DNA of 48,127 bases, taken from the NCBI GenBank assembly GCA_024684955.1, contig JAIKWH010000032.1, positions 1 through 48,127 of the forward strand, written 5' to 3'. The first letter of the stretch is position 1, and each line of letters opens with the position of its first letter. Origin of the DNA: Pseudobutyrivibrio sp. Its GTDB lineage: Bacteria > Bacillota > Clostridia > Lachnospirales > Lachnospiraceae. Positions 3,921 to 45,305 of this stretch are shown here, piece by piece. The position numbers were made by a program, and so were the translations under genes. Under the pieces are notes generated by a model. That model was not told the DNA's origin, searched no databases, and worked only from the letters and a program-made list of their open reading frames with translations.

Positions 3921-3985
3921 TGAGTATACAGTAATTTCCCATGTATTTCATTAGAAAATCAAGGAAAGAACTGAAATATTTATAG

Positions 3986-4323
3986 TGGACCTGATGGGAG
4001 TCGAACCCATGTCCAAAAGCCAATTCCCGGCCCTTCTACGAGTGTAGTTTGTGTTTTGACATTCCCTCTGCCTATCTTCCACAAACAGAATCTAGGTTTT
4101 AGTAGCTTCATAATACGCCCATTTGCTCAAAGCTTTGCAAAAGTCGTTTCCTACAAGGTCGAAGTCTGGTTCCTAATGTGTAGGTGCATCAGGTCAGACT
4201 GCAGCAACTAGGCTGCGTATGCTAAATTATCGTTAGCGTTTAAATTTAAATTGGCCATTTAACCCATTACCGTGGGACTCGCTTCTTCCGCTGCATGACC
4301 CCTGTCGAAACCATGACAGGCCC
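3986..4323 (-). ncRNA. ssrA: Transfer-messenger RNA (tmRNA, SsrA)
   Basis: This RNA frees stalled ribosomes and adds a degradation tag. The 5' end GGGCCTG (from 4323) pairs with CAGGTCC before 3986 as the seven-pair acceptor stem. The 3' part has the T-arm with GGGTTCGACTCCC. The tag frame, 4237 down to the TAG at 4208, reads A-N-D-N-L-A-Y-A-A. The CCA end is not encoded (ACTA follows), so it must be added after processing. It lies directly downstream of smpB, its protein partner, with its own promoter overlapping the smpB stop. The mature length of about 338 plus CCA is normal for one-piece tmRNA. Ends are placed from the acceptor stem. Confidence 0.96.
4208..4237 (-). other. tmRNA tag reading frame (ANDNLAYAA)
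   Basis: The resume codon GCT (4237-4235) is followed by AAC GAT AAT TTA GCA TAC GCA GCC and the stop TAG. The encoded tag is ANDNLAYAA. The AND start and AA end are typical of Clostridia, while the usual end YALAA reads LAYAA here. Confidence 0.9.
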
Positions 4324-25477: not shown

Positions 25478-26659
25478 TTATTTCACATGAATAACTTCCA
25501 CGGAGTCAATAGCCTCCTGCATCAACTGGTCAATCTTTTCATCCAGCAAGTGCTCATGTTTTTCTATTACCTCAAGTTTTGGCTTAGTAACAGGATGCTT
25601 TGCTACAAATATTGTGCAGCAATCCTCATAAGGCAAAATTGAGGTCTCATATGTATCAATCTTTTCAGATATATCAACAATGTCCTGCTTATCAAAAGCT
25701 ATAAGTGGTCTGTAAACAGGAAGTGAACATACGGCATTGGTACAATTGAGGGACTGCATGGTCTGGCTGGCCACCTGCCCAATTGACTCGCCAGTGACAA
25801 GTCCAATACATCCATCCTCTTTTGCAAAGTGCTCAGCAAGTCTCATCATGTAGCGTCTCATAATGATTGTCAGTTCCTCGTGGGCGCAGGTCTGGTAGAT
25901 ATACATTTGGATATCGGTAAAGTTGACAATATGCAGGTCAATAGGACCAGAATATTTAGCCACTAAAGCAGCCAAATCTACTACCTTTTGCTTTGCCTGC
26001 TCTGATGTATAAGGTGGTGCATGGAAATATGTAGCAGACAGATTAACTCCACGCTTAGAAATCATATAGCCAGCAACTGGAGAATCAATGCCTCCAGACA
26101 AAAGGAGCATAGCCTTGCCTGCTGTGCCAACTGGCATGCCGTGAGGTCCTGGAATCTCAGTAGAATAGATAGAGATTTTTTCTCTCACCTCTACATTAAT
26201 CATCTTGTCTGGGTGATGAACATCAACTCTCATCTCAGGGAAGGCTGCAAGCAGTCTCTCTCCAACTGCAGCCGCTACCTCCATAGATGTCATTGGATAG
26301 TTTTTGTTTGCCCTCTTGCCAAAGACCTTGAAAGAGAAATTCTTGTCCTCAAATTCTCCATCAACATAGTCAACAACGGCCTGGGCCATATCATCGAATC
26401 CTGTGTCATCAACCACAACAGTAGGGCAAATTGCAGAAATACCAAAGACATGTTTGAGAGCATCTACTGCCTCATCAAAATCATAGTCCCCATCAACAGT
26501 GACAAAGACTCTTCCGCTTTGTTTTTCTACCTTAAAATCACCCTCCACTTTGGCCAGGGCAAACTTTATCTGGCGCACAAGAGCATCCTCAAATACATAC
26601 CTGTTTTTGCCCTTTACACCAATTTCAGAATACTTAATCAAAAAAGCCTGATAATTCAT
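25478..26659 (-). CDS. thiI: tRNA 4-thiouridine synthase ThiI
   Basis: ThiI activates uridine 8 of tRNA with ATP and inserts sulfur; it can also serve thiamine thiazole synthesis. The 393-residue protein has the N-terminal ferredoxin-like and THUMP domain (about 1-165) and the PP-loop LLLSGGIDSPVAGYM near residue 180, and ends after the ATP pyrophosphatase domain. The C-terminal rhodanese domain of E. coli ThiI is absent, as usual in Firmicutes, so sulfur must come directly from a cysteine desulfurase. That enzyme is encoded directly upstream, 36 bases away. This pairing matches ThiI-NifZ of B. subtilis. Confidence 0.96.
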   Translation of the reverse strand: MNYQAFLIKYSEIGVKGKNRYVFEDALVRQIKFALAKVEGDFKVEKQSGRVFVTVDGDYDFDEAVDALKHVFGISAICPTVVVDDTGFDDMAQAVVDYVDGEFEDKNFSFKVFGKRANKNYPMTSMEVAAAVGERLLAAFPEMRVDVHHPDKMINVEVREKISIYSTEIPGPHGMPVGTAGKAMLLLSGGIDSPVAGYMISKRGVNLSATYFHAPPYTSEQAKQKVVDLAALVAKYSGPIDLHIVNFTDIQMYIYQTCAHEELTIIMRRYMMRLAEHFAKEDGCIGLVTGESIGQVASQTMQSLNCTNAVCSLPVYRPLIAFDKQDIVDISEKIDTYETSILPYEDCCTIFVAKHPVTKPKLEVIEKHEHLLDEKIDQLMQEAIDSVEVIHVK

Positions 26660-26695
26660 ATAATCCTACTTTCAAACATTTATTTCAAACAGTCT

Positions 26696-27847
26696 CTACA
26701 ATACCATCATTGGCACCAATTTAGCAAGTGCAGAAATAGCAGCATCTATTTCCTCCACTGTATTCTCCGGGCAAAAAGAAAATCTAATAGTCTTTTCTAA
26801 AAGAGAACTATCTAGGCCAATGGCCTTTAGGGTGCTGCTAATGCCTGGTTTGTTAGAGGAGCAAGCACTGCCGGCAGATACCAAAATCCCGTAGTCATTC
26901 TCAAGACAGTTTAATATTACCTGAGCCTTTGTCCTGTTGCCCTGGATAGACACAGACACAATATGGGGAGCAGAATTTTGGTCTGTGTGACCATTTACTG
27001 ACAGGCCCTCTATGGCAGAAACGCCTTTGATAAAGCGGTCTCTAAGCATGTACATATGGTCTCTGTTTTTATCCAAATTCTCATAGCAAAGCTTTGCAGC
27101 CAGGCCTAGTCCTGCTATGGCAGGGACATTTTCTGTGCCAGATCTCATGCCCCTCTCGTGGCCACCGCCTAGTATCTGTGGCACCACCAATAGCCCGTCT
27201 TTAATATAAATAAAGCCAGACCCCTTTGGTCCGTGAATCTTGTGCCCACTGATGGTGAGAATATCTATGTTCATCTTTTTAGGGATGATTGTCATTTTGC
27301 CAAAAGCCTGAATTGCATCCACATGGAATGTGGCATTTGGATTTATCTTTTTAATAAGGGCACCTGCCTCAGCAATGGGCTCTAGGGCTCCAATCTCATT
27401 GTTGACCATCATAATGGATACGAGAATTGTATCCTCTCTAATGGAATTTTTTAATTCCTCCAGGTCAATGACACCATATTTATCAACAGACAGGTAAGTC
27501 ACCTCAAATCCCTGTTTTTCCAAGGCTTTGATAGGATTAAGCACAGAGGCATGCTCTATTTGTGTAGTAATGATATGGTTGCCCAGCCTCTTTTTTGCAT
27601 CGGCTGTACCCCTTATTGCCAGGTTGTTTCCCTCTGTTCCGCCTGAGGTAAAATAGATTTCCTTGTCCTTGCATTTTAGGATAGAGGCGATTTCCTTTCT
27701 AGCATTGTTTAAATAATCTCTGCCAATTTTTGCCCCAAACTGGTGGAGGGATGAAGGGTTGCCAAAATTGTCCTGGAGGCACTCTCTCATAATCTCCATT
27801 GAGGCGTCGCAACATCTAGTAGTAGCTGAATTGTCTAAGTATATCAT
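26696..27847 (-). CDS. Cysteine desulfurase (NifS/IscS class V, ThiI partner)
   Basis: The enzyme takes sulfur from cysteine as a persulfide using pyridoxal phosphate. The 383-residue protein starts MIYLDNSATTRC, has the PLP lysine in SGHKIHGPKGSG near residue 200, and the catalytic cysteine in VSAGSACSSNKPGISS near residue 325. No iscU follows; thiI does, so a dedicated role as ThiI sulfur donor (like NifZ) is more likely than general Fe-S assembly. The ATG lies in TAATG at the end of rsmE with GAGG before it, so translation is coupled. Confidence 0.93.
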   Translation of the reverse strand: MIYLDNSATTRCCDASMEIMRECLQDNFGNPSSLHQFGAKIGRDYLNNARKEIASILKCKDKEIYFTSGGTEGNNLAIRGTADAKKRLGNHIITTQIEHASVLNPIKALEKQGFEVTYLSVDKYGVIDLEELKNSIREDTILVSIMMVNNEIGALEPIAEAGALIKKINPNATFHVDAIQAFGKMTIIPKKMNIDILTISGHKIHGPKGSGFIYIKDGLLVVPQILGGGHERGMRSGTENVPAIAGLGLAAKLCYENLDKNRDHMYMLRDRFIKGVSAIEGLSVNGHTDQNSAPHIVSVSIQGNRTKAQVILNCLENDYGILVSAGSACSSNKPGISSTLKAIGLDSSLLEKTIRFSFCPENTVEEIDAAISALAKLVPMMVL

Positions 27848-38758: not shown

Positions 38759-39733
38759 TTAATCCAAATTAATCATTTCCTGATAGAAGTTTAGGTAATC
38801 CTTTCTCTCATCTTTTGTAAACTGGATTGCAGTCCTTGGATGTTGGTTTAAAAGGCCAGTAACCAGATACTGCAAATCATATCCCCAAACAACGCCTGAC
38901 TCTTTTAAAGGCAGCATGTATTTCTCAACAAATTCAAAAGCGTATCTCTCCTTGTACTTAGGATTCTTTAAAAATCCAAGAAGAAGCTCCATAGCGCAGT
39001 TTCCTGCCCCACGTCCCATTGAATTGTATGTTCCATCAAGGTAATCTACCTCATCTCCAACTGCCTCAATTGTGTTGGCAAAGGCGAGTTTTTGATTGTC
39101 GTGAGCATGGATACCCACCTTCTTTCCATACTTGGCAGCCTTGTTGCAGTATAAATCGGCAATACGTTGAATCTGCTCAGGATACAAAGAACCATAGGAA
39201 TCAACAATATATACGCAAGAAATTGGAGTCTGGCAAATAATATCAAGGGCAGCAGACACATCCTCCTTGCCGGCAGTTGAAATGGCCATAATATTGCAAG
39301 TGGTTTCATAGCCTTTTTTGCAAGCATCCTCAATCATAGCCACTGCTCCTGGCAACTGGTGGAGATAAGTTGCCACACGAATCATATCAACAGGACTCTC
39401 CGCCTTGTCATGGATATCCTCCTTATAATTGCAACGGCCTACATCTGCCATAATAGCAATTTTAAGGTCAGTATTATTGTCACCAACAATCTTTCTAATA
39501 TATTCATCTGATGAGAATTTCCATGGGCCAAACTTATCTGGATCAAATTGCTCCTTGTCAGCTCGATAGCCCATTTCCATATAATCTACTCCAGCCTTAA
39601 CATTAGTCTCATAAAGAGCCTTGGCAAATTCGTCGGTAAAATAAAAGTCATTAACAAGGCCTCCGTCTCTAAGGGTGGCATCAACTACACGAACACTCTC
39701 TCTAACTTCAAGAAGTTTTGATATTTCCTTCAT
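38759..39733 (-). CDS. DRE-TIM aldolase-like protein (HMGL-like domain)
   Basis: This 324-residue protein belongs to the DRE-TIM metallolyase superfamily (HMG-CoA lyase, isopropylmalate synthase, hydroxy-oxovalerate aldolase). The metal-site signature reads VRVVDATLRDGGLVNDFYF near residue 12, and later VYIVDSYGSLYPEQI and VGIHAHDNQKLAFANT give the remaining metal ligands (HxH). YMEMGYRADKEQFD and GAGNCAMELLL agree with 4-hydroxy-2-oxovalerate aldolase-like members. No acetaldehyde dehydrogenase partner gene is here, so the substrate is open. The ATG at 39733 has GAGGAG upstream. Two promoter-like elements lie upstream. Confidence 0.82.
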   Translation of the reverse strand: MKEISKLLEVRESVRVVDATLRDGGLVNDFYFTDEFAKALYETNVKAGVDYMEMGYRADKEQFDPDKFGPWKFSSDEYIRKIVGDNNTDLKIAIMADVGRCNYKEDIHDKAESPVDMIRVATYLHQLPGAVAMIEDACKKGYETTCNIMAISTAGKEDVSAALDIICQTPISCVYIVDSYGSLYPEQIQRIADLYCNKAAKYGKKVGIHAHDNQKLAFANTIEAVGDEVDYLDGTYNSMGRGAGNCAMELLLGFLKNPKYKERYAFEFVEKYMLPLKESGVVWGYDLQYLVTGLLNQHPRTAIQFTKDERKDYLNFYQEMINLD

Positions 39734-39793
39734 GGTATTTCTCCTCGTAATAAATTTTAGCATTTCACTTTAGTGGTTAAAAGCGATAAAGTG

Positions 39794-39869: not shown

Positions 39870-39910
39870 TTTTTTAAAAAAAAGAGTCCCCGACAAATGT
39901 CGGGGACTCT
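39870..39910 (-). terminator. Terminator of the GGGtGRT operon
   Basis: AGAGTCCCCGAC pairs perfectly with GTCGGGGACTCT around AAAT. On the minus strand TTTTTTTT follows. The 12-pair stem lies about 15 bases after the GGGtGRT stop. Confidence 0.92.
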
Positions 39911-39926
39911 ATAAAATCTAATAGTA

Positions 39927-40937
39927 TTAGAACTTACCAGCCTTTGCAGCTTCCTCAACAGAAACGGCAACAGCAACTGTAGCACCAACCATAGGGTTGT
40001 TACCCATACCGATAAGACCCATCATTTCAACGTGTGCAGGAACTGAAGATGAACCAGCGAACTGAGCATCTGAGTGCATACGTCCCATTGTATCAGTCAT
40101 ACCGTATGAAGCAGGACCAGCTGCCATGTTATCTGGGTGAAGTGTACGACCTGTACCACCACCTGAAGCAACTGAGAAGTACTTCTTACCCTGCTCGTTG
40201 CATTCCTTCTTGTAAGTACCAGCTACTGGATGCTGGAAACGAGTTGGGTTTGTAGAGTTACCAGTGATAGAAACGCCAACGTTCTCGTGGTGCATGATAG
40301 CAACACCTTCCTGAACATCGTCAGCGCCGTAGCACTTAACTGTGGCACGAAGACCATCAGAATAAGCCTTCTCATATACTACATTAAGCTGTGCAGCCTT
40401 GTAATCGTACTTTGTCTCAACATATGTGAAACCATTGATACGAGAAATGATCTGTGCAGCGTCTTTTCCAAGACCGTTAAGGATAACGCGAAGAGGCTTC
40501 TGGCGAACCTTGTTAGCCTTTTCAGCGATACCGATAGCACCTTCAGCAGCAGCGAATGACTCGTGACCTGCCAAGAAACAGAAGCACTCTGTCTCCTCCT
40601 CAAGGAGCATCTTTCCAAGGTTACCATGTCCAAGACCAACCTTTCTGTGGTCTGCAACAGAACCTGGGATACAGAAAGCCTGAAGACCTTCTCCGATTGC
40701 TGCAGCTGCATCAGCAGCCTTGCGGCAACCCTTCTTAATAGCGATTGCAGCACCTACAGTGTAAGCCCAGCAAGCATTCTCAAAGCAGATAGGCTGAATT
40801 TTCTTTACCTGCTCGTATACATCAAGACCTGCGTCCTTTGTAATCTTCTCAGCTTCTTCGATTGAGCTGATTCCATATTTATTAAGAGCAGCATTGATCT
40901 GGTCAATTCTTCTCTCATATGATTCAAATAAAGCCAT
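39927..40937 (-). CDS. GGGtGRT protein, function unknown
   Basis: This 336-residue protein matches the family named for its motif: SVASGGGTGRTLHPDN, with GGGTGRT at 259-265. Other conserved-looking blocks are GLGHGNLGKM (101-110), CFCFLAGHESFAAAEGAIG (near 118-136) and MGLIGMGNNPMVGATVAVA near the end. Eight cysteines are present, including the C118/C120 pair. The C-terminus resembles a nucleotide- or cofactor-binding region, but no fold is assigned here. Codon use is strongly biased to preferred codons, for example CGT for arginine, which suggests abundance. It lies 20 bases downstream of an IscU-like scaffold gene, a pairing that I regard as typical. A function in sulfur or Fe-S handling is inference only. 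Confidence 0.85.
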   Translation of the reverse strand: MALFESYERRIDQINAALNKYGISSIEEAEKITKDAGLDVYEQVKKIQPICFENACWAYTVGAAIAIKKGCRKAADAAAAIGEGLQAFCIPGSVADHRKVGLGHGNLGKMLLEEETECFCFLAGHESFAAAEGAIGIAEKANKVRQKPLRVILNGLGKDAAQIISRINGFTYVETKYDYKAAQLNVVYEKAYSDGLRATVKCYGADDVQEGVAIMHHENVGVSITGNSTNPTRFQHPVAGTYKKECNEQGKKYFSVASGGGTGRTLHPDNMAAGPASYGMTDTMGRMHSDAQFAGSSSVPAHVEMMGLIGMGNNPMVGATVAVAVSVEEAAKAGKF

Positions 40938-40957
40938 TTTAGTATCTCCTTTCTCTC

Positions 40958-41650
40958 TTATTCCTGACGTGGATCGATAATCTTAACAGCATCTTTAACA
41001 CGGCCGTACTCGCCCTTTGCCTTTTCCCATGCTGTATTAGGATCATCACCCTTCTTGATAAAGTCTGTCATTTTTCCAAGAGAAACGAACTGGTAACCGA
41101 TAACTTCGTTGTCAGCGTCAAGAGCAATACCTGTAACATAGCCTTCAGCCATCTCAAGGTAACGAACGCCCTTTTCCTTTGTTGCGTACATAGTACCAAC
41201 CTGTGAACGAAGACCCTTTCCAAGGTCCTCAAGACCAGCACCTACAGCAAGTCCGTCATCAGAGAATGCAGACTGTGTACGTCCGTAAACGATCTGGAGG
41301 AAAAGCTCTCTCATAGCTGTGTTAATAGCATCACAAACAAGGTCTGTGTTAAGAGCCTCGAGAATTGTCTTACCCTGAAGAACCTCTGCTGCCATAGCTG
41401 CAGAATGTGTCATACCTGAGCAACCAATTGTCTCAACAAGTGCCTCTTCGATAACACCATTCTTAACATTTAAAGATAATTTGCAGGCACCCTGCTGTGG
41501 AGCACACCAGCCAACACCGTGTGTAAAACCGCTAATATCAGAAATCTGCTTAGCGTGTACCCATTTTCCCTCCTCAGGGATAGGAGCTGGTTCATGCTTT
41601 GCGCCCTTAGCTACAGGACACATGTTTTCTACTTCTTTTGTGTAAATCAT
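40958..41650 (-). CDS. IscU/NifU-like iron-sulfur scaffold protein
   Basis: This 230-residue protein has the IscU/NifU N-terminal scaffold pattern with changed spacing. Cysteines lie at 11, 49, 56, 77 and 106; GWCAPQQGACKLSLNV and VETIGCSGMTHSAAMAAEVLQGKT replace the standard GCG and CxD segments, while SAAMAAEVLQGKTI keeps the helix pattern. It is longer than IscU by about 90 residues, with a C-terminal half (about 150-230) of its own. AGGAG lies seven bases before the ATG at 41650; the longer frame from 41674 lacks a site. It is followed directly by GGGtGRT, and codon use is equally biased. No iscS, sufBC or fdx lies beside it. Confidence 0.85.
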   Translation of the reverse strand: MIYTKEVENMCPVAKGAKHEPAPIPEEGKWVHAKQISDISGFTHGVGWCAPQQGACKLSLNVKNGVIEEALVETIGCSGMTHSAAMAAEVLQGKTILEALNTDLVCDAINTAMRELFLQIVYGRTQSAFSDDGLAVGAGLEDLGKGLRSQVGTMYATKEKGVRYLEMAEGYVTGIALDADNEVIGYQFVSLGKMTDFIKKGDDPNTAWEKAKGEYGRVKDAVKIIDPRQE

Positions 41651-41815
41651 TGTAGAACTCCTTTCTTCGTTCAAATACCATTAATATATCATGTATTACA
41701 TTAATGACATGTTTAATAAAAACCGCATAACGGCATTATTGAATATATTTTCTCACTTTCACGGTAGTTAGTAAAGTACTCTTTGCAAAAAATCGTTAAA
41801 AAAATATCTAAATCT
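41651..41815. other. AT-rich gap before the IscU-like gene
   Basis: The 165 bases contain an inverted CATTAATG pair (about 41677-41705) just upstream of the IscU-like start and a weak ACCG/CGGC hairpin with T-run (about 41722-41740) that may end the TPM operon on the minus strand. A TATATT-type -10 box is present, but no good -35 was found. Confidence 0.35.
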
Positions 41816-42604
41816 TTAGAAACTGTGACCACCACTAGAGAAGCCACCGCCACCTCCGCCAGAGCTGAAACCGCCTCCACCGGATGAGAAGCCACCACCT
41901 GAGCTGTGATATCCTCCTGAGCTGCCACCACTGTAGTGGGATTGCTCCGGCACTCTTCTCTTTTTAAAATCATATACATTTGCAAGGCCCTTAAATGTAG
42001 CCCCTACCAAGAACATTTCTGGTACACCTTTTATTTCATTTTCCTTTGACCTATCAGCCATTGCTTTTAGAAATGTACCAAGGAAGCCTATAATGATGGA
42101 AATTAAAAGGGATACGATTATTCGCATAGGACGAAGAACAAATTCATAGTTTGCAACTAAATCAGCCTGACGAAAAGCATGATAAATACAATTGTAATAG
42201 TCCCCATCGGAAGCATACCTATATACATTATCTGTAATGTCAGTACAATCGCCAGAATCAAGATTATACTGTAAGCTGTTGCGCCCCTGTAGTTCAATAC
42301 GTCTAGTATCCATATCCACAATAAAAGCTATACCATCCTCATTAGCATCAAATTCCTGCCTATAATAATTGTCTAGCTTTTCTAATGCAGAAGAGCCCAT
42401 TGCACTATCGTCGGATGTAACAACAAGATAGTTCACCGTACCATCTAATGCTTCTAGATATTCTTCAAGCTCCTCTGTCTCTTCATTAGTTAAAATCCCA
42501 GCATCATCTACAATCTTTACATTGTCAGTAGCTGCACTTACTGTAAGTGGAAAAATAAATACTAACGCAAATACGATAAATACCCGTGATAAAAGTTTAC
42601 GCAT
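41816..42604 (-). CDS. TPM-domain secreted/membrane protein (YdjH-like)
   Basis: This 262-residue protein has a signal peptide (MRKLLSRVFIVFALVF to about SAA at 24), a TPM domain (about 30-145: VKIVDDAGILTNEETEELEEYL, then NYLVVTSDDSAM and GIAFIVDMDTRRIEL), one or two membrane helices near 160-185, and a C-terminal tail of about 45 residues rich in Gly and Ser (GGGFSSGGGGFSSGG) ending in HSF. TPM domains occur in phosphatase-like and membrane-repair proteins. The ATG at 42604 has GGAGGG upstream and overlaps the preceding gene by eight bases. It is the third gene of a trio resembling YdjI-YdjG-YdjH of the B. subtilis membrane-stress operon. Confidence 0.8.
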   Translation of the reverse strand: MRKLLSRVFIVFALVFIFPLTVSAATDNVKIVDDAGILTNEETEELEEYLEALDGTVNYLVVTSDDSAMGSSALEKLDNYYRQEFDANEDGIAFIVDMDTRRIELQGRNSLQYNLDSGDCTDITDNVYRYASDGDYYNCIYHAFRQADLVANYEFVLRPMRIIVSLLISIIIGFLGTFLKAMADRSKENEIKGVPEMFLVGATFKGLANVYDFKKRRVPEQSHYSGGSSGGYHSSGGGFSSGGGGFSSGGGGGGFSSGGHSF

Positions 42605-44180
42605 TTTCAAGCCCTCCTCCCTTTTTCATAAACTGTGGAGAAGGATGTGTGGCAAATCGATTGTATTCGTTTACGATAGCACTGATAGAAAACAATATAA
42701 CCACAAAAACTGCGACCATAATAAAATAATAGTAAATGTCATTTGGCAAATCGATTATCTTAAGTGCGACTGCAGCAATCCAAGAGATTAGGCTTAAAAC
42801 GTACACAGTCTTTTTACCTTGCTTGACAGTGATTGTAGCAAGAACAATCAAAACAAAGCTGGCTGCAAAAAGACATTTAATAAGCAACCAAACAATAGCA
42901 AATACAACAGATGGAACAAAAAATACTCCCGCAATAAAAGCAATACAAACAACTGCAAGGAATGCTAATAAATTACTAACCCATTTTTTACCACCTTTTT
43001 TAGGCTTTATTCCCTTTGAGCTTTCTTTGGTTGCAAAATATCCCTTGTCATCCAAATGATTATCGTGTCGATAAGTTTCATAGGCAAGATATGCTCCAAT
43101 AAAGCCAATTAATGAGGCTGAAAATGCACCGAAATCGCATAAACGTTTTACATCATAGCCTATTCCCAGAGCATATGAAGCGATTAATAAAATAATAAAA
43201 GCTATCGCAGATACGATAACAGATGATTTAAACATCTTTTTCTTATCAATAGGAACATCTACATAAGTATTGCCTGATGCACCGTTAATGATTGAATAAG
43301 CTACACGGTCCTTATATCTGGTGGTCATAAAATATAATGGTAAATATGCTCCGTCCACATCTTTAAATTCAAGCTTGTCATTAAGAGCAGTTTTTACATC
43401 ATTTTCATAAGAGCCTTCAGGCTTATACTCTCCACTTTTTTTGATGACCCTATCATAAAGATAGTCCTTAACCTTACCGTCTGAATCTGTTTTGTAAAGA
43501 TCCTTATCCACAGAGGAATTTTCTACAAAAAAACCAGCCAAATAATTGGGATTAAACTCTGTAAGTTCCCCCATTGGAAAAGGTTCCAAACGCTCAGCCA
43601 TAGAATCGTCCAAAGACTGAGATCCATCAAAAGGCACCATAATATGTGGCACATTTACCTTAACTGTAACTTTGGCCTTCTCAGTGTATTCATACTGGCC
43701 TCTAGTTTGCACATGAACGCCATCGTAACAAATATCATCACTAATTCCGTAATCATAGAGAAAATAAGGAGTATAAAGTCCTACTAGCTTTTCTACATTT
43801 TCCTCTTTATCTAAACCATCAGGAGCAAATGCAACGTTCTTGGTAGCATTAACGTATTTTTTCTTGGCATCCTCCCTAGATATTTTAAAAGGCAAAATAT
43901 AGTGAGGAGCCCCCTCTTCTGAAAAGTGCTCCTGCATGGTTGCTTGAGACCCGCAGAATGGGCAAAACTCCATACCATCATTATCGATGAGCTGAATCTG
44001 ACCAGCGCAGTTAGGACATGTATAGATTTTTGTATACACCTTATCAAAATTTATCTTGTCGTTAGGAGTATATTTATTAACACTCTGATAAGAACCACAA
44101 GATAAGCACTTTAATTTTTGATTTTCGATATCAAATCGAAGCTGTCCTCCACAACTAGGACATGGAAACATTGTTGCCAT
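42597..44180 (-). CDS. Multi-zinc-ribbon membrane protein (YdjG-like)
   Basis: This 527-residue protein has two zinc ribbons with four CxxC pairs within residues 1-80: FPCPSCGGQ, KCLSCGS, YTCPNCAGQ and FCPFCGSQ. A soluble middle region of about 220 residues follows (PHYILPFKISREDAKKKYVNATK, LVGLYTPYFLYDYG), then about five membrane helices (about 315-505). The middle segment is typical of the YdjG-type zinc-ribbon proteins. The gene lies between the SPFH gene and the TPM gene, overlapping the latter by eight bases. In B. subtilis YdjG and YdjH form a membrane complex connected with PspA; the function here is inferred from that arrangement. Confidence 0.78.
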   Translation of the reverse strand: MATMFPCPSCGGQLRFDIENQKLKCLSCGSYQSVNKYTPNDKINFDKVYTKIYTCPNCAGQIQLIDNDGMEFCPFCGSQATMQEHFSEEGAPHYILPFKISREDAKKKYVNATKNVAFAPDGLDKEENVEKLVGLYTPYFLYDYGISDDICYDGVHVQTRGQYEYTEKAKVTVKVNVPHIMVPFDGSQSLDDSMAERLEPFPMGELTEFNPNYLAGFFVENSSVDKDLYKTDSDGKVKDYLYDRVIKKSGEYKPEGSYENDVKTALNDKLEFKDVDGAYLPLYFMTTRYKDRVAYSIINGASGNTYVDVPIDKKKMFKSSVIVSAIAFIILLIASYALGIGYDVKRLCDFGAFSASLIGFIGAYLAYETYRHDNHLDDKGYFATKESSKGIKPKKGGKKWVSNLLAFLAVVCIAFIAGVFFVPSVVFAIVWLLIKCLFAASFVLIVLATITVKQGKKTVYVLSLISWIAAVALKIIDLPNDIYYYFIMVAVFVVILFSISAIVNEYNRFATHPSPQFMKKGGGLENA

Positions 44181-44201: not shown

Positions 44202-45305
44202 TTAAGGTCTTTTTGTTCCGCAGTTAGTGCAGAAGTTACCATGATTTTCGTTGCCACACTGTGGGCAGAACCATCTGTCTGTAGCCTGAGAAGCATTTGA
44301 TGCAGCACCAGCAGCACCAGCCTGTAAAAGCTCGTTTGCATTAGCGCCACCAGCCTGCATAGCCATATTCATTCCGAAAAGTCCCATTGCAGCTCCATTT
44401 GGATTGTTTGCAGCAGCCTTCATTGCCTCTGCCTGAGCAGTAACAAGTGTTGCGCCTGCCATAGACTGATTACGAAGTGCGCCAGCCTTCTGAAGCTCAT
44501 TAAGAGTAGCCTGATCTTCTTCTGGAATATCAGCACCTACGATTTGAACAGAGCTAATTTCAATACCAAATTGCTTTGTCCATGTCTCATTAACCTCATT
44601 TTTCATAGCCTCTGAGATTTCCTTTGTATGGCCAGGAAGTGCTGAAGGTCTGATTTCAAGGCCTGAAAGTTGGCTAACTGCTGGCTGAAGAGCCTGAACA
44701 AATAAAGCCCTAATCTGCTCAGACAAATCCTCTACTGTATATTCATCCTTTACATTACCTGCAAGACAGCCATATATCTGAGTAGGGTCTGAAATATGGA
44801 TACTAAAGTTTCCGTTGCAACGAAGCTTTGTATCAAAATCTAGCCCAACATTTTTATCAACAATTCTAAAAGGAATAGGTGTAGGTGTTCCAAATTTAAG
44901 ACCAATAATTTCCTTTGTATTTACGAAATAAATTCTCTGCTGAACTGGCTTTTCTCCACCAAATGTAAATCTACGGCCAAGCTCCTTAAAGATATCAACA
45001 AAATCCCCTGCAAATACAGAAGCGCTACCGTTGTCTTCCCATTCATAAGCACCTGGCTCAGCAGCAATATCAATAACCTTACCGCTGTCTACTAAAATAG
45101 CGCACTGACCAGCGTTTACTATAAGAGCAGAACCCTTTGTAATGACATCCTGGTCTCCATGTTTGTTTGAGCTACGACGAGATTCTTTCTTCTGAGCTCT
45201 CTTAATCAATGTTCCACCGCTCATTGAGTCGCAAACATAAAAATCCTTCCATTGATTAGCAAGCTCTCCTGAAACAGAACCTACAACTGCTTTAATTAAT
45301 CCCAT
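44202..45305 (-). CDS. SPFH-domain protein with C-terminal zinc ribbon (YdjI-like)
   Basis: This 367-residue protein carries the SPFH/virion-core-like domain of the YdjI group (about 30-260: SALIVNAGQCAILVDSGKVIDIAAEPGAY..., ISDPTQIYGCLAG, PGHTKEISEAMKNEV). A linker rich in Ala, Asn, Gly and Met (about 275-340) leads to a C-terminal zinc ribbon with FCPQCGNENHGNFCTNCG. SPFH proteins form oligomers on membranes; the zinc ribbon probably interacts with the YdjG-like partner, whose N-terminus has the same kind of ribbon. GGGAGG precedes the ATG. It is the first gene of the trio. Confidence 0.85.
   Translation of the reverse strand: MGLIKAVVGSVSGELANQWKDFYVCDSMSGGTLIKRAQKKESRRSSNKHGDQDVITKGSALIVNAGQCAILVDSGKVIDIAAEPGAYEWEDNGSASVFAGDFVDIFKELGRRFTFGGEKPVQQRIYFVNTKEIIGLKFGTPTPIPFRIVDKNVGLDFDTKLRCNGNFSIHISDPTQIYGCLAGNVKDEYTVEDLSEQIRALFVQALQPAVSQLSGLEIRPSALPGHTKEISEAMKNEVNETWTKQFGIEISSVQIVGADIPEEDQATLNELQKAGALRNQSMAGATLVTAQAEAMKAAANNPNGAAMGLFGMNMAMQAGGANANELLQAGAAGAASNASQATDRWFCPQCGNENHGNFCTNCGTKRP

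What the first reader, a model, noticed from the sequence alone, without database searches (positions are those of the whole stretch)
39927..41650. GGGtGRT protein plus divergent IscU-like scaffold: an undescribed two-gene system
A protein of unknown function with an SVASGGGTGRT loop is encoded directly after an enlarged IscU-like scaffold with altered cysteine spacing. Without IscS or SufBC, the pair may form its own sulfur or Fe-S unit or a cofactor-making complex. It is well bounded by a strong terminator.
Basis: partly seen in the sequence, partly recalled or inferred. Interest (0 to 1): 0.75.

Follow-up and report, generated by a model that had tools for sequence, protein, structure and literature searches.

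The report
Obligate IscU-like/GGGtGRT gene pair
Many gut and sediment anaerobes carry an inseparable pair of genes, one for a reshaped relative of the iron-sulfur scaffold IscU and one for the catalogued but functionally unknown GGGtGRT protein; published tables show the pair made in larger amounts when iron is plentiful, so it is probably an abundant iron protein whose job is still unknown.

Summary
Window 40958-41650 (-) encodes a 230-aa IscU-like protein (U); 20 nt on, 39927-40937 (-) encodes a full-length GGGtGRT protein (G, Pfam PF14057), closed by a strong terminator. G is a catalogued family without known function. The pair is obligate where tested: U lies just before G in 77 of 77 assessable loci (of 80); in 118 Clostridia genomes both occur in the same 54 and in none of the other 64. 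Records from six phyla carry it. U lacks IscU's first cysteine and aspartate and has its own invariant C49, C56, C77, C106, so it is not a canonical scaffold. "Without IscS or SufBC" holds for the operon only: an IscS-type desulfurase with ThiI lies in this window and a SufC/SufB-like pair elsewhere in the genome. Published tables, not studies of function, show the pair iron-dependent in Bacteroides thetaiotaomicron and Clostridium pasteurianum; one paper calls G highly expressed in vivo. Best reading: a stoichiometric, iron-consuming metalloprotein complex with U as metal-bearing subunit and G as enzyme-like partner, rather than a general scaffold. Metal, complex and reaction are unproven.

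The parts
40958..41650 (-). U: IscU-like protein, 230 aa, divergent NifU_N domain plus about 110 extra C-terminal residues
39927..40937 (-). G: GGGtGRT protein, 336 aa, PF14057 full length
40143..40175 (-). codons 255-265 of G, SVASGGGTGRT loop; leads into the segment 259-297 that is most conserved (33 of 39 positions) but lowest in model confidence
41504..41506 (-). U Cys49 (89 of 89 sequences)
41483..41485 (-). U Cys56 (88 of 89)
41420..41422 (-). U Cys77 (89 of 89), aligned with the middle cysteine (GC) of canonical IscU
41333..41335 (-). U Cys106 (89 of 89)
40938..40957 (-). 20-nt gap between U and G holding a Shine-Dalgarno-like AGAAAGGAG
   Evidence: sequence
41658..41664 (-). Shine-Dalgarno-like AAAGGAG of U
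   Evidence: sequence
41679..41706 (-). dyad CATTAATGTA-N8-TATATTAATG before U, conserved in part of the genus and found only at this place in the genomes that have it: possible operator
39883..39910 (-). intrinsic terminator after G

Best explanation
U and G form one stoichiometric, iron-dependent metalloprotein complex, mostly of anaerobes. Shown: an obligate two-gene operon, extreme conservation, an IscU-like core in U with a changed cysteine set, published co-regulation by iron in two phyla, signs of high expression. Inferred: the cell's general machinery (in this host an IscS-type desulfurase and SufC/SufB-like proteins) builds an Fe-S or other iron centre on U's four invariant cysteines. 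U keeps this centre as a working subunit instead of handing it on as canonical IscU does. G is an alpha/beta protein whose invariant Gly/Ser/Thr/Asn/Arg loops at the ends of its strands (GHES, NGLGKD, TGNSTNPTR, SGGGTGRT) look like a binding site for a phosphate-bearing or other anionic ligand. Its 259-297 segment probably becomes ordered only against U or the ligand. Together they would act as an abundant iron enzyme that is switched down when iron is short. The substrate is unknown.
For: U just before G, same strand, in 77 of 77 assessable of 80 loci; 54 of 54 versus 0 of 64 genomes. Pairwise distances of U and G correlate, r = 0.80, 0 of 1000 permutations as high (76 loci; both genes may simply follow species history). 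G has 156 of 336 positions and U 92 of 230 at 98.5% identity or more across 87 and 89 sequences (two short G sequences left out). The least confident stretch of the G model (259-297) is the most conserved (33 of 39 positions against 123 of the other 297), as expected of a ligand- or partner-ordered site. B. thetaiotaomicron BT0173-74 fall 11- to 12.8-fold without iron; iron enzymes such as nitrite reductase (30- to 36-fold), fumarate hydratase, Rnf and HydEFG fall too, ferritin 2.7-fold (PMC10434189, passages and section 7 part 3 of 6). C. pasteurianum G is 7.1-fold and U 2.4- and 3.7-fold higher with iron in early phase (PMC5395762, section 11). High expression: G and U rank 2 and 3 of 39 window ORFs in codon bias; PMC11204068 calls G highly expressed in vivo in distantly related gut taxa (passage). 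U fold hits ISCU at E 4.6e-4.
Against: No metal or complex has been shown; the two proteins were not modelled together. The U model is poor (pLDDT 66, pTM 0.48). The G fold has no match at E 0.001 or better in the PDB, so 'enzyme' rests on the conservation pattern alone. Many B. thetaiotaomicron genes with no known iron cofactor (glycan use, SusC/SusD) also fall without iron, some by comparable factors (for example BT0360-65, 4.1- to 8.4-fold), so part of the response may be indirect. Iron-dependent expression also fits a store or a maturation factor. G itself has only two near-invariant cysteines (C89 in 86 of 87, C118 in 87 of 87).
Confidence: 0.42

Rival explanations
1. Iron or iron-sulfur store: U nucleates iron (with sulfide) and G forms an assembly around it, so that iron is banked when plentiful.
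For: Induction with iron and high abundance are what a store would show. B. thetaiotaomicron ferritin moves in the same direction; U and ferritin both fall about 2-fold in one C. pasteurianum substrate comparison, among many other proteins (PMC4916542, passage). A thioferrate store, IssA, is known in another prokaryote (abstract start only).
Against: G has enzyme-like invariant loops and few clustered metal ligands by sequence; stores seldom need 46% near-invariant positions (inference).
Confidence: 0.23
2. Dedicated cofactor assembly: U is a specialised scaffold that builds a cluster for G or another target.
For: IscU-like core; in Collinsella the pair lies about 1.9 kb behind sufB-sufD-sufS-sufU, with a transposase between. 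U's C106 could stand in for IscU's last cysteine (inference).
Against: By alignment U lacks IscU's first cysteine and aspartate, and the HC motif could not be placed. No third gene recurs in more than 27 of 80 loci, and the two most frequent neighbours are a topoisomerase and a hexapeptide protein. Both proteins look abundant rather than catalytic in amount. HydF is enriched but not required (44 of 54 with the pair, 38 of 64 without; p = 0.015, not corrected for relatedness).
Confidence: 0.2
3. Sulfur transfer: U is a zinc sulfurtransferase like SufU that accepts persulfide from the desulfurase, and G uses the sulfur on a small molecule.
For: SufU shares the fold; an IscS-type gene and thiI lie in the same window, about 12-13 kb from G.
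Against: A strong fall without iron is not expected of a zinc protein; U scores 20.7 against a cut-off of 92.5 for SufU.
Confidence: 0.1

Closest known systems
PF14057 GGGtGRT protein family
   Same: G is a full-length member at 650.3 bits.
   Different: Nothing: an ordinary member. Nine library papers hold the word GGGtGRT; in the five of which I read passages or sections no function is studied, the other four I saw only in the listing.
IscU / NifU_N scaffold (PF01592; TIGR01999, TIGR03419)
   Same: Core of U (about residues 33-113), GC cysteine (C77), best fold hits.
   Different: C37 falls on Q53 and D39 on A55, the HC motif could not be placed; C49, C56 and C106 are its own; about 110 extra residues; just over Pfam's NifU_N cut-off but far under the NCBIfam scaffold cut-offs.
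SufU zinc sulfurtransferase (TIGR01994)
   Same: Fold relative.
   Different: 20.7 bits against a cut-off of 92.5; iron-dependent expression of relatives of the pair.
SufBC / SmsBC
   Same: Fe-S machinery; SufC- and SufB-like genes are present in the host on another contig.
   Different: Different protein families; the pair is separate from them in this genome.
IssA thioferrate store (abstract start only)
   Same: An iron-sulfur store, possible functional parallel.
   Different: No sequence comparison was made here; it would be a parallel, not a relative.

Membership tests
PF14057 GGGtGRT | score over the curated cut-off along the whole profile | tested here: met
   650.3 bits, profile 1-327 of 327
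IscU/NifU_N scaffold | NifU_N domain over cut-off | tested here: inconclusive
   23.1 bits against 22, residues 57-113 only; three NCBIfam scaffold models far under cut-off
IscU/NifU_N scaffold | three cluster cysteines plus Asp39 and His105 (recalled) at conserved positions | tested here: not met
   only the middle cysteine aligns (C77); first cysteine and Asp fall on Q53 and A55; the HC motif lies outside the aligned part
IscU/NifU_N scaffold | IscU fold | tested here: inconclusive
   best hits are ISCU chains, E 4.6e-4, but model pLDDT 66 and pTM 0.48
IscU/NifU_N scaffold | assembles and transfers an Fe-S cluster | not testable with these tools
   needs purified protein
SufU sulfurtransferase | TIGR01994 over cut-off | tested here: not met
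   20.7 against 92.5 bits
Iron or Fe-S store | many iron atoms per complex, released on demand | not testable with these tools
   only published expression tables point that way
H-cluster maturation system | strict co-occurrence with HydF | tested here: not met
   10 of 54 pair-bearing genomes have no HydF over cut-off; two of these (G051, G132) show a partial hit to its first 60-80 positions

The most novel reading that the evidence does not exclude
U-G is a previously unrecognised class of abundant iron-sulfur machine in anaerobes, in which an IscU-type scaffold has been turned into a permanent cluster-bearing subunit (or iron-sulfur bank) of a partner with a fold not yet in the PDB, shared by gut Clostridia, Bacteroidota, Lentisphaerota and others and throttled by iron supply.
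Probability: 0.4. Interest if true: 0.82.

Novelty: new variant of a known kind. Interest (0 to 1): 0.56.

Why it matters
A protein pair that responds strongly to iron in two phyla, that turns up in metaproteomes and that is conserved like core machinery has no known role. Showing what it does would explain part of the iron economy of gut and rumen anaerobes, and would show how the ancient IscU fold can be reused. The question is directly testable by a two-gene deletion in B. thetaiotaomicron and one anaerobic purification.

Tried and rejected
H-cluster maturation as the role: HydF is enriched with the pair but not required. PFOR in the phylum of the Victivallis genome was uninformative: over cut-off in 28 of 30 genomes with G and 22 of 29 without. 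Replacement of the housekeeping scaffold: rejected, since 47 of 54 pair-bearing genomes also have a separate, stronger NifU_N protein; the other 7 (own genome included) each have a SufB-like hit of 48-73 bits, under the cut-off, in a frame of 310-343 aa. Riboswitch control: no Rfam match beside the genes in the window or in 16 loci. RNA hairpin at the dyad: z = -1.28, not exceptional. Recurrent third gene: none general; a topoisomerase (27 of 80 loci, median 4.1 kb before G) and a hexapeptide-repeat protein (25 of 80, median 1.7 kb before G) are the most frequent neighbours, one example of each identified, probably local synteny among related Clostridia. Recalled locus tags CAC3290/3291 and PF14057 as search words gave nothing that I used. 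PDB sequence search of G: only a soluble guanylyl cyclase at E 0.02, taken as chance.

Full report
What is there. Two genes on the minus strand, U (40958-41650) then G (39927-40937), lie 20 nt apart, each with a Shine-Dalgarno-like sequence, and end in a 12-bp terminator. The next gene downstream (HMGL-like protein, 38759-39763) has its own 12/12 promoter-like site. Upstream lies a TPM-domain protein (41816-42610), which I do not count as part of the unit. G is a full-length PF14057 protein. U is a very divergent NifU_N protein with about 110 additional residues after the domain.

Is the pair real? Yes. U sits just upstream of G on the same strand in 77, at a distance of at most 263 nt; the other three (L066, L080, L101) have less than 225 nt of DNA before G. 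In an even sample of 118 Clostridia genomes, G is in 54 and a strong U match (250 bits or more) in exactly those 54. Weak matches under 35 bits, also in genomes without G, were read as other NifU-like proteins and not counted as U. In the phylum of the Victivallis genome (L097; Lentisphaerota in NCBI; the group name used by the search was not told) G is in 30 of 59 genomes; U stood beside G in all 20 of these whose loci were fetched. Among 14 named control genomes only Bacteroides ihuae has G. In plasmid records 10 match: Vibrio 3, Persicobacter 2, Parabacteroides, Phocaeicola, Bacteroides, Subdoligranulum, Collinsella. U is beside G in the five that I opened (Vibrio, Collinsella, Persicobacter, Parabacteroides with a 63-aa ORF between, B. 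finegoldii). By record titles this makes six phyla: Bacillota, Bacteroidota, Actinomycetota, Pseudomonadota, Lentisphaerota and Thermodesulfobacteriota. The last two rest on metagenome bins that could be misassigned. G of the other phyla is about 70-82% identical to the window's G, U about 67-77%. Vibrio is not a strict anaerobe (recalled), so the pair is not confined to anaerobes.

What U is. Ten canonical NifU proteins were fetched and aligned by profile with 36 U proteins: 95% probability, 65 columns, U 33-101. The canonical KCGD motif falls on Q53-G54-A55, so the first cysteine and the aspartate are gone; the second cysteine is C77; the canonical HC motif lies outside the aligned part, so C106 of U could still play that role. 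In 89 U sequences C49, C77 and C106 are in all and C56 in 88. That IscU's ligands are C37, D39, C63, H105 and C106 is recalled, not from a call. The predicted U fold is weak (pLDDT 66) but its best PDB hits are ISCU/IscU chains, three at E 0.001 or better. So U has an IscU-like core but fails the ligand test for membership as a scaffold.

What G is. The AlphaFold model (36 fairly close sequences) has pLDDT 80, pTM 0.82, with helices in 7-112 and then an alpha/beta part; 259-297 is below 50. No PDB match reaches E 0.001; weak hits include eIF2B alpha and phosphofructokinase. Invariant residues crowd the loops after strands 118-122, 150-156, 220-225 and 254-257, a pattern that I read as an active site; this is inference. 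The low-confidence stretch is the most conserved one (33 of 39 against 123 of 297 positions).

Host machinery. The own genome (86% complete, 84 contigs) has one clear cysteine desulfurase of the IscS/NifS type, window 26696-27847, in front of thiI (25478-26659). The only other Aminotran_5 match over 40 bits looks like serC to me from its sequence (the desulfurase exceeds the cut-off only of NF002806, an IscS subfamily model). SufC- and SufB-like genes stand side by side on contig C74 (L172 2146-2892 and 2892-3818; both below equivalog cut-offs). Its only NifU_N matches are the two U copies. So the pair does not stand alone in the genome.

Iron. In B. thetaiotaomicron BT0173-74 (GGGtGRT, NifU) fall 11- to 12.8-fold without iron (PMC10434189; passages and section 7 part 3 of 6 read). 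In the part read, nitrite reductase (30- to 36-fold), fumarate hydratase with an acyltransferase (3- to 7.3-fold), HydEFG and Rnf (about 3-fold) fall too, but so do many glycan-use and SusC/SusD genes, some significantly and by up to about 8-fold; larger figures in that part mostly carry weak statistics. Ferritin falls 2.7-fold. In C. pasteurianum G is 7.1-fold up with iron in early and 2.2-fold in late phase, the largest Fe+ early value in the printed table; U spots are 2.4- and 3.7-fold up in early and 1.6- and 2.9-fold in late phase (PMC5395762 section 11). Both papers list the genes without studying them, as far as I read. PMC11204068 (passages) reports high expression in vivo in distant taxa; PMC7035244 (passages) lists G of Pseudobutyrivibrio and Eubacterium in a rumen metaproteome. 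In this window G and U are second and third of 39 ORFs of 150 aa or more in codon bias by effective number of codons (33.7 and 35.5), behind ketol-acid reductoisomerase.

Literature state. Nine papers in the library hold the word GGGtGRT. I read passages in PMC7035244, PMC11204068 and PMC9942572, passages plus a section or part of one in PMC10434189 and PMC5395762, and saw PMC12101220, PMC12014591, PMC12643325 and PMC13041051 only in the listing. None of the passages read studies function; PMC9942572 lists the name among putative virulence factors from an automatic predictor, which I regard as uninformative. Further searches; they showed no functional study in their listings. The library lacks most subscription papers and preprints, so one could exist outside it.

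Regulation. A dyad CATTAATGTA-N-TAYATT(TT)AATG sits 23-33 nt before the U start in 14 of 94 upstream regions: the window, 12 loci of its genus and L035, whose upstream sequence equals that of L013. A related pattern occurs once each in 8 of 26 genus genomes (the reversed control pattern hit in one). Seven of the sites lie just before U by coordinates; the eighth (G219) lies at a contig end beside a gene whose product resembles the TPM-domain protein upstream of U in the window, with U itself not on the contig. It may be a private operator. As RNA it is not exceptional.

Conclusion. The family is catalogued, the function is not known from the library. A stoichiometric iron-consuming complex explains co-inheritance, iron response, abundance and the altered cysteine set best, at 0.42; a store (0.23), a dedicated scaffold (0.20) and sulfur transfer (0.10) remain open.

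Noticed in passing
G 3' end: L048, L053, L056, L064, L083, L089; G152, G132, G055, G054, G138; L192 (phage record MT836003.1); L081 7625-8716: A stretch of 32-46 nt at the 3' end of G is repeated (81-100% alike) 0.8-2 kb downstream in 6 of 84 loci, 5 of 118 genomes have a second match to only the last 28-30 profile positions, a faecal phage record begins with the last 63 codons of G, and L081 has a phage integrase downstream (PF00589). The gene end looks like an attachment site for integrating elements; no integrase was shown inside the six repeat-bounded stretches.
   Followed up: partly
L002 780-1911 (G000 contig C76 end): A second, 98% identical U and the first 140 codons of a second G in the same genome bin, cut by the contig end. 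Real duplication or a co-binned relative; near-closed genomes of the genus (G003, G009, G011) show one copy.
   Followed up: partly
L146 1-6993 (Collinsella): The pair lies behind sufB-sufD-sufS-sufU with a transposase between.
   Followed up: no
L148 5800-5991 (Parabacteroides): A 63-aa ORF without Pfam match lies between U and G; B. finegoldii has none annotated.
   Followed up: no
window 25478-27847 (-): IscS-type cysteine desulfurase followed by ThiI, a likely sulfur source for the host's tRNA thiolation and Fe-S assembly.
   Followed up: yes
window 3983-4323 (-): tmRNA gene (Rfam RF00023, 131.3 bits).
   Followed up: no
window 44202-45305 (-): SPFH/Band 7 protein with a Cys-rich C-terminal tail has the fourth strongest codon bias of 39 ORFs, beside a zinc-ribbon membrane protein and a TPM protein.
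   Followed up: no
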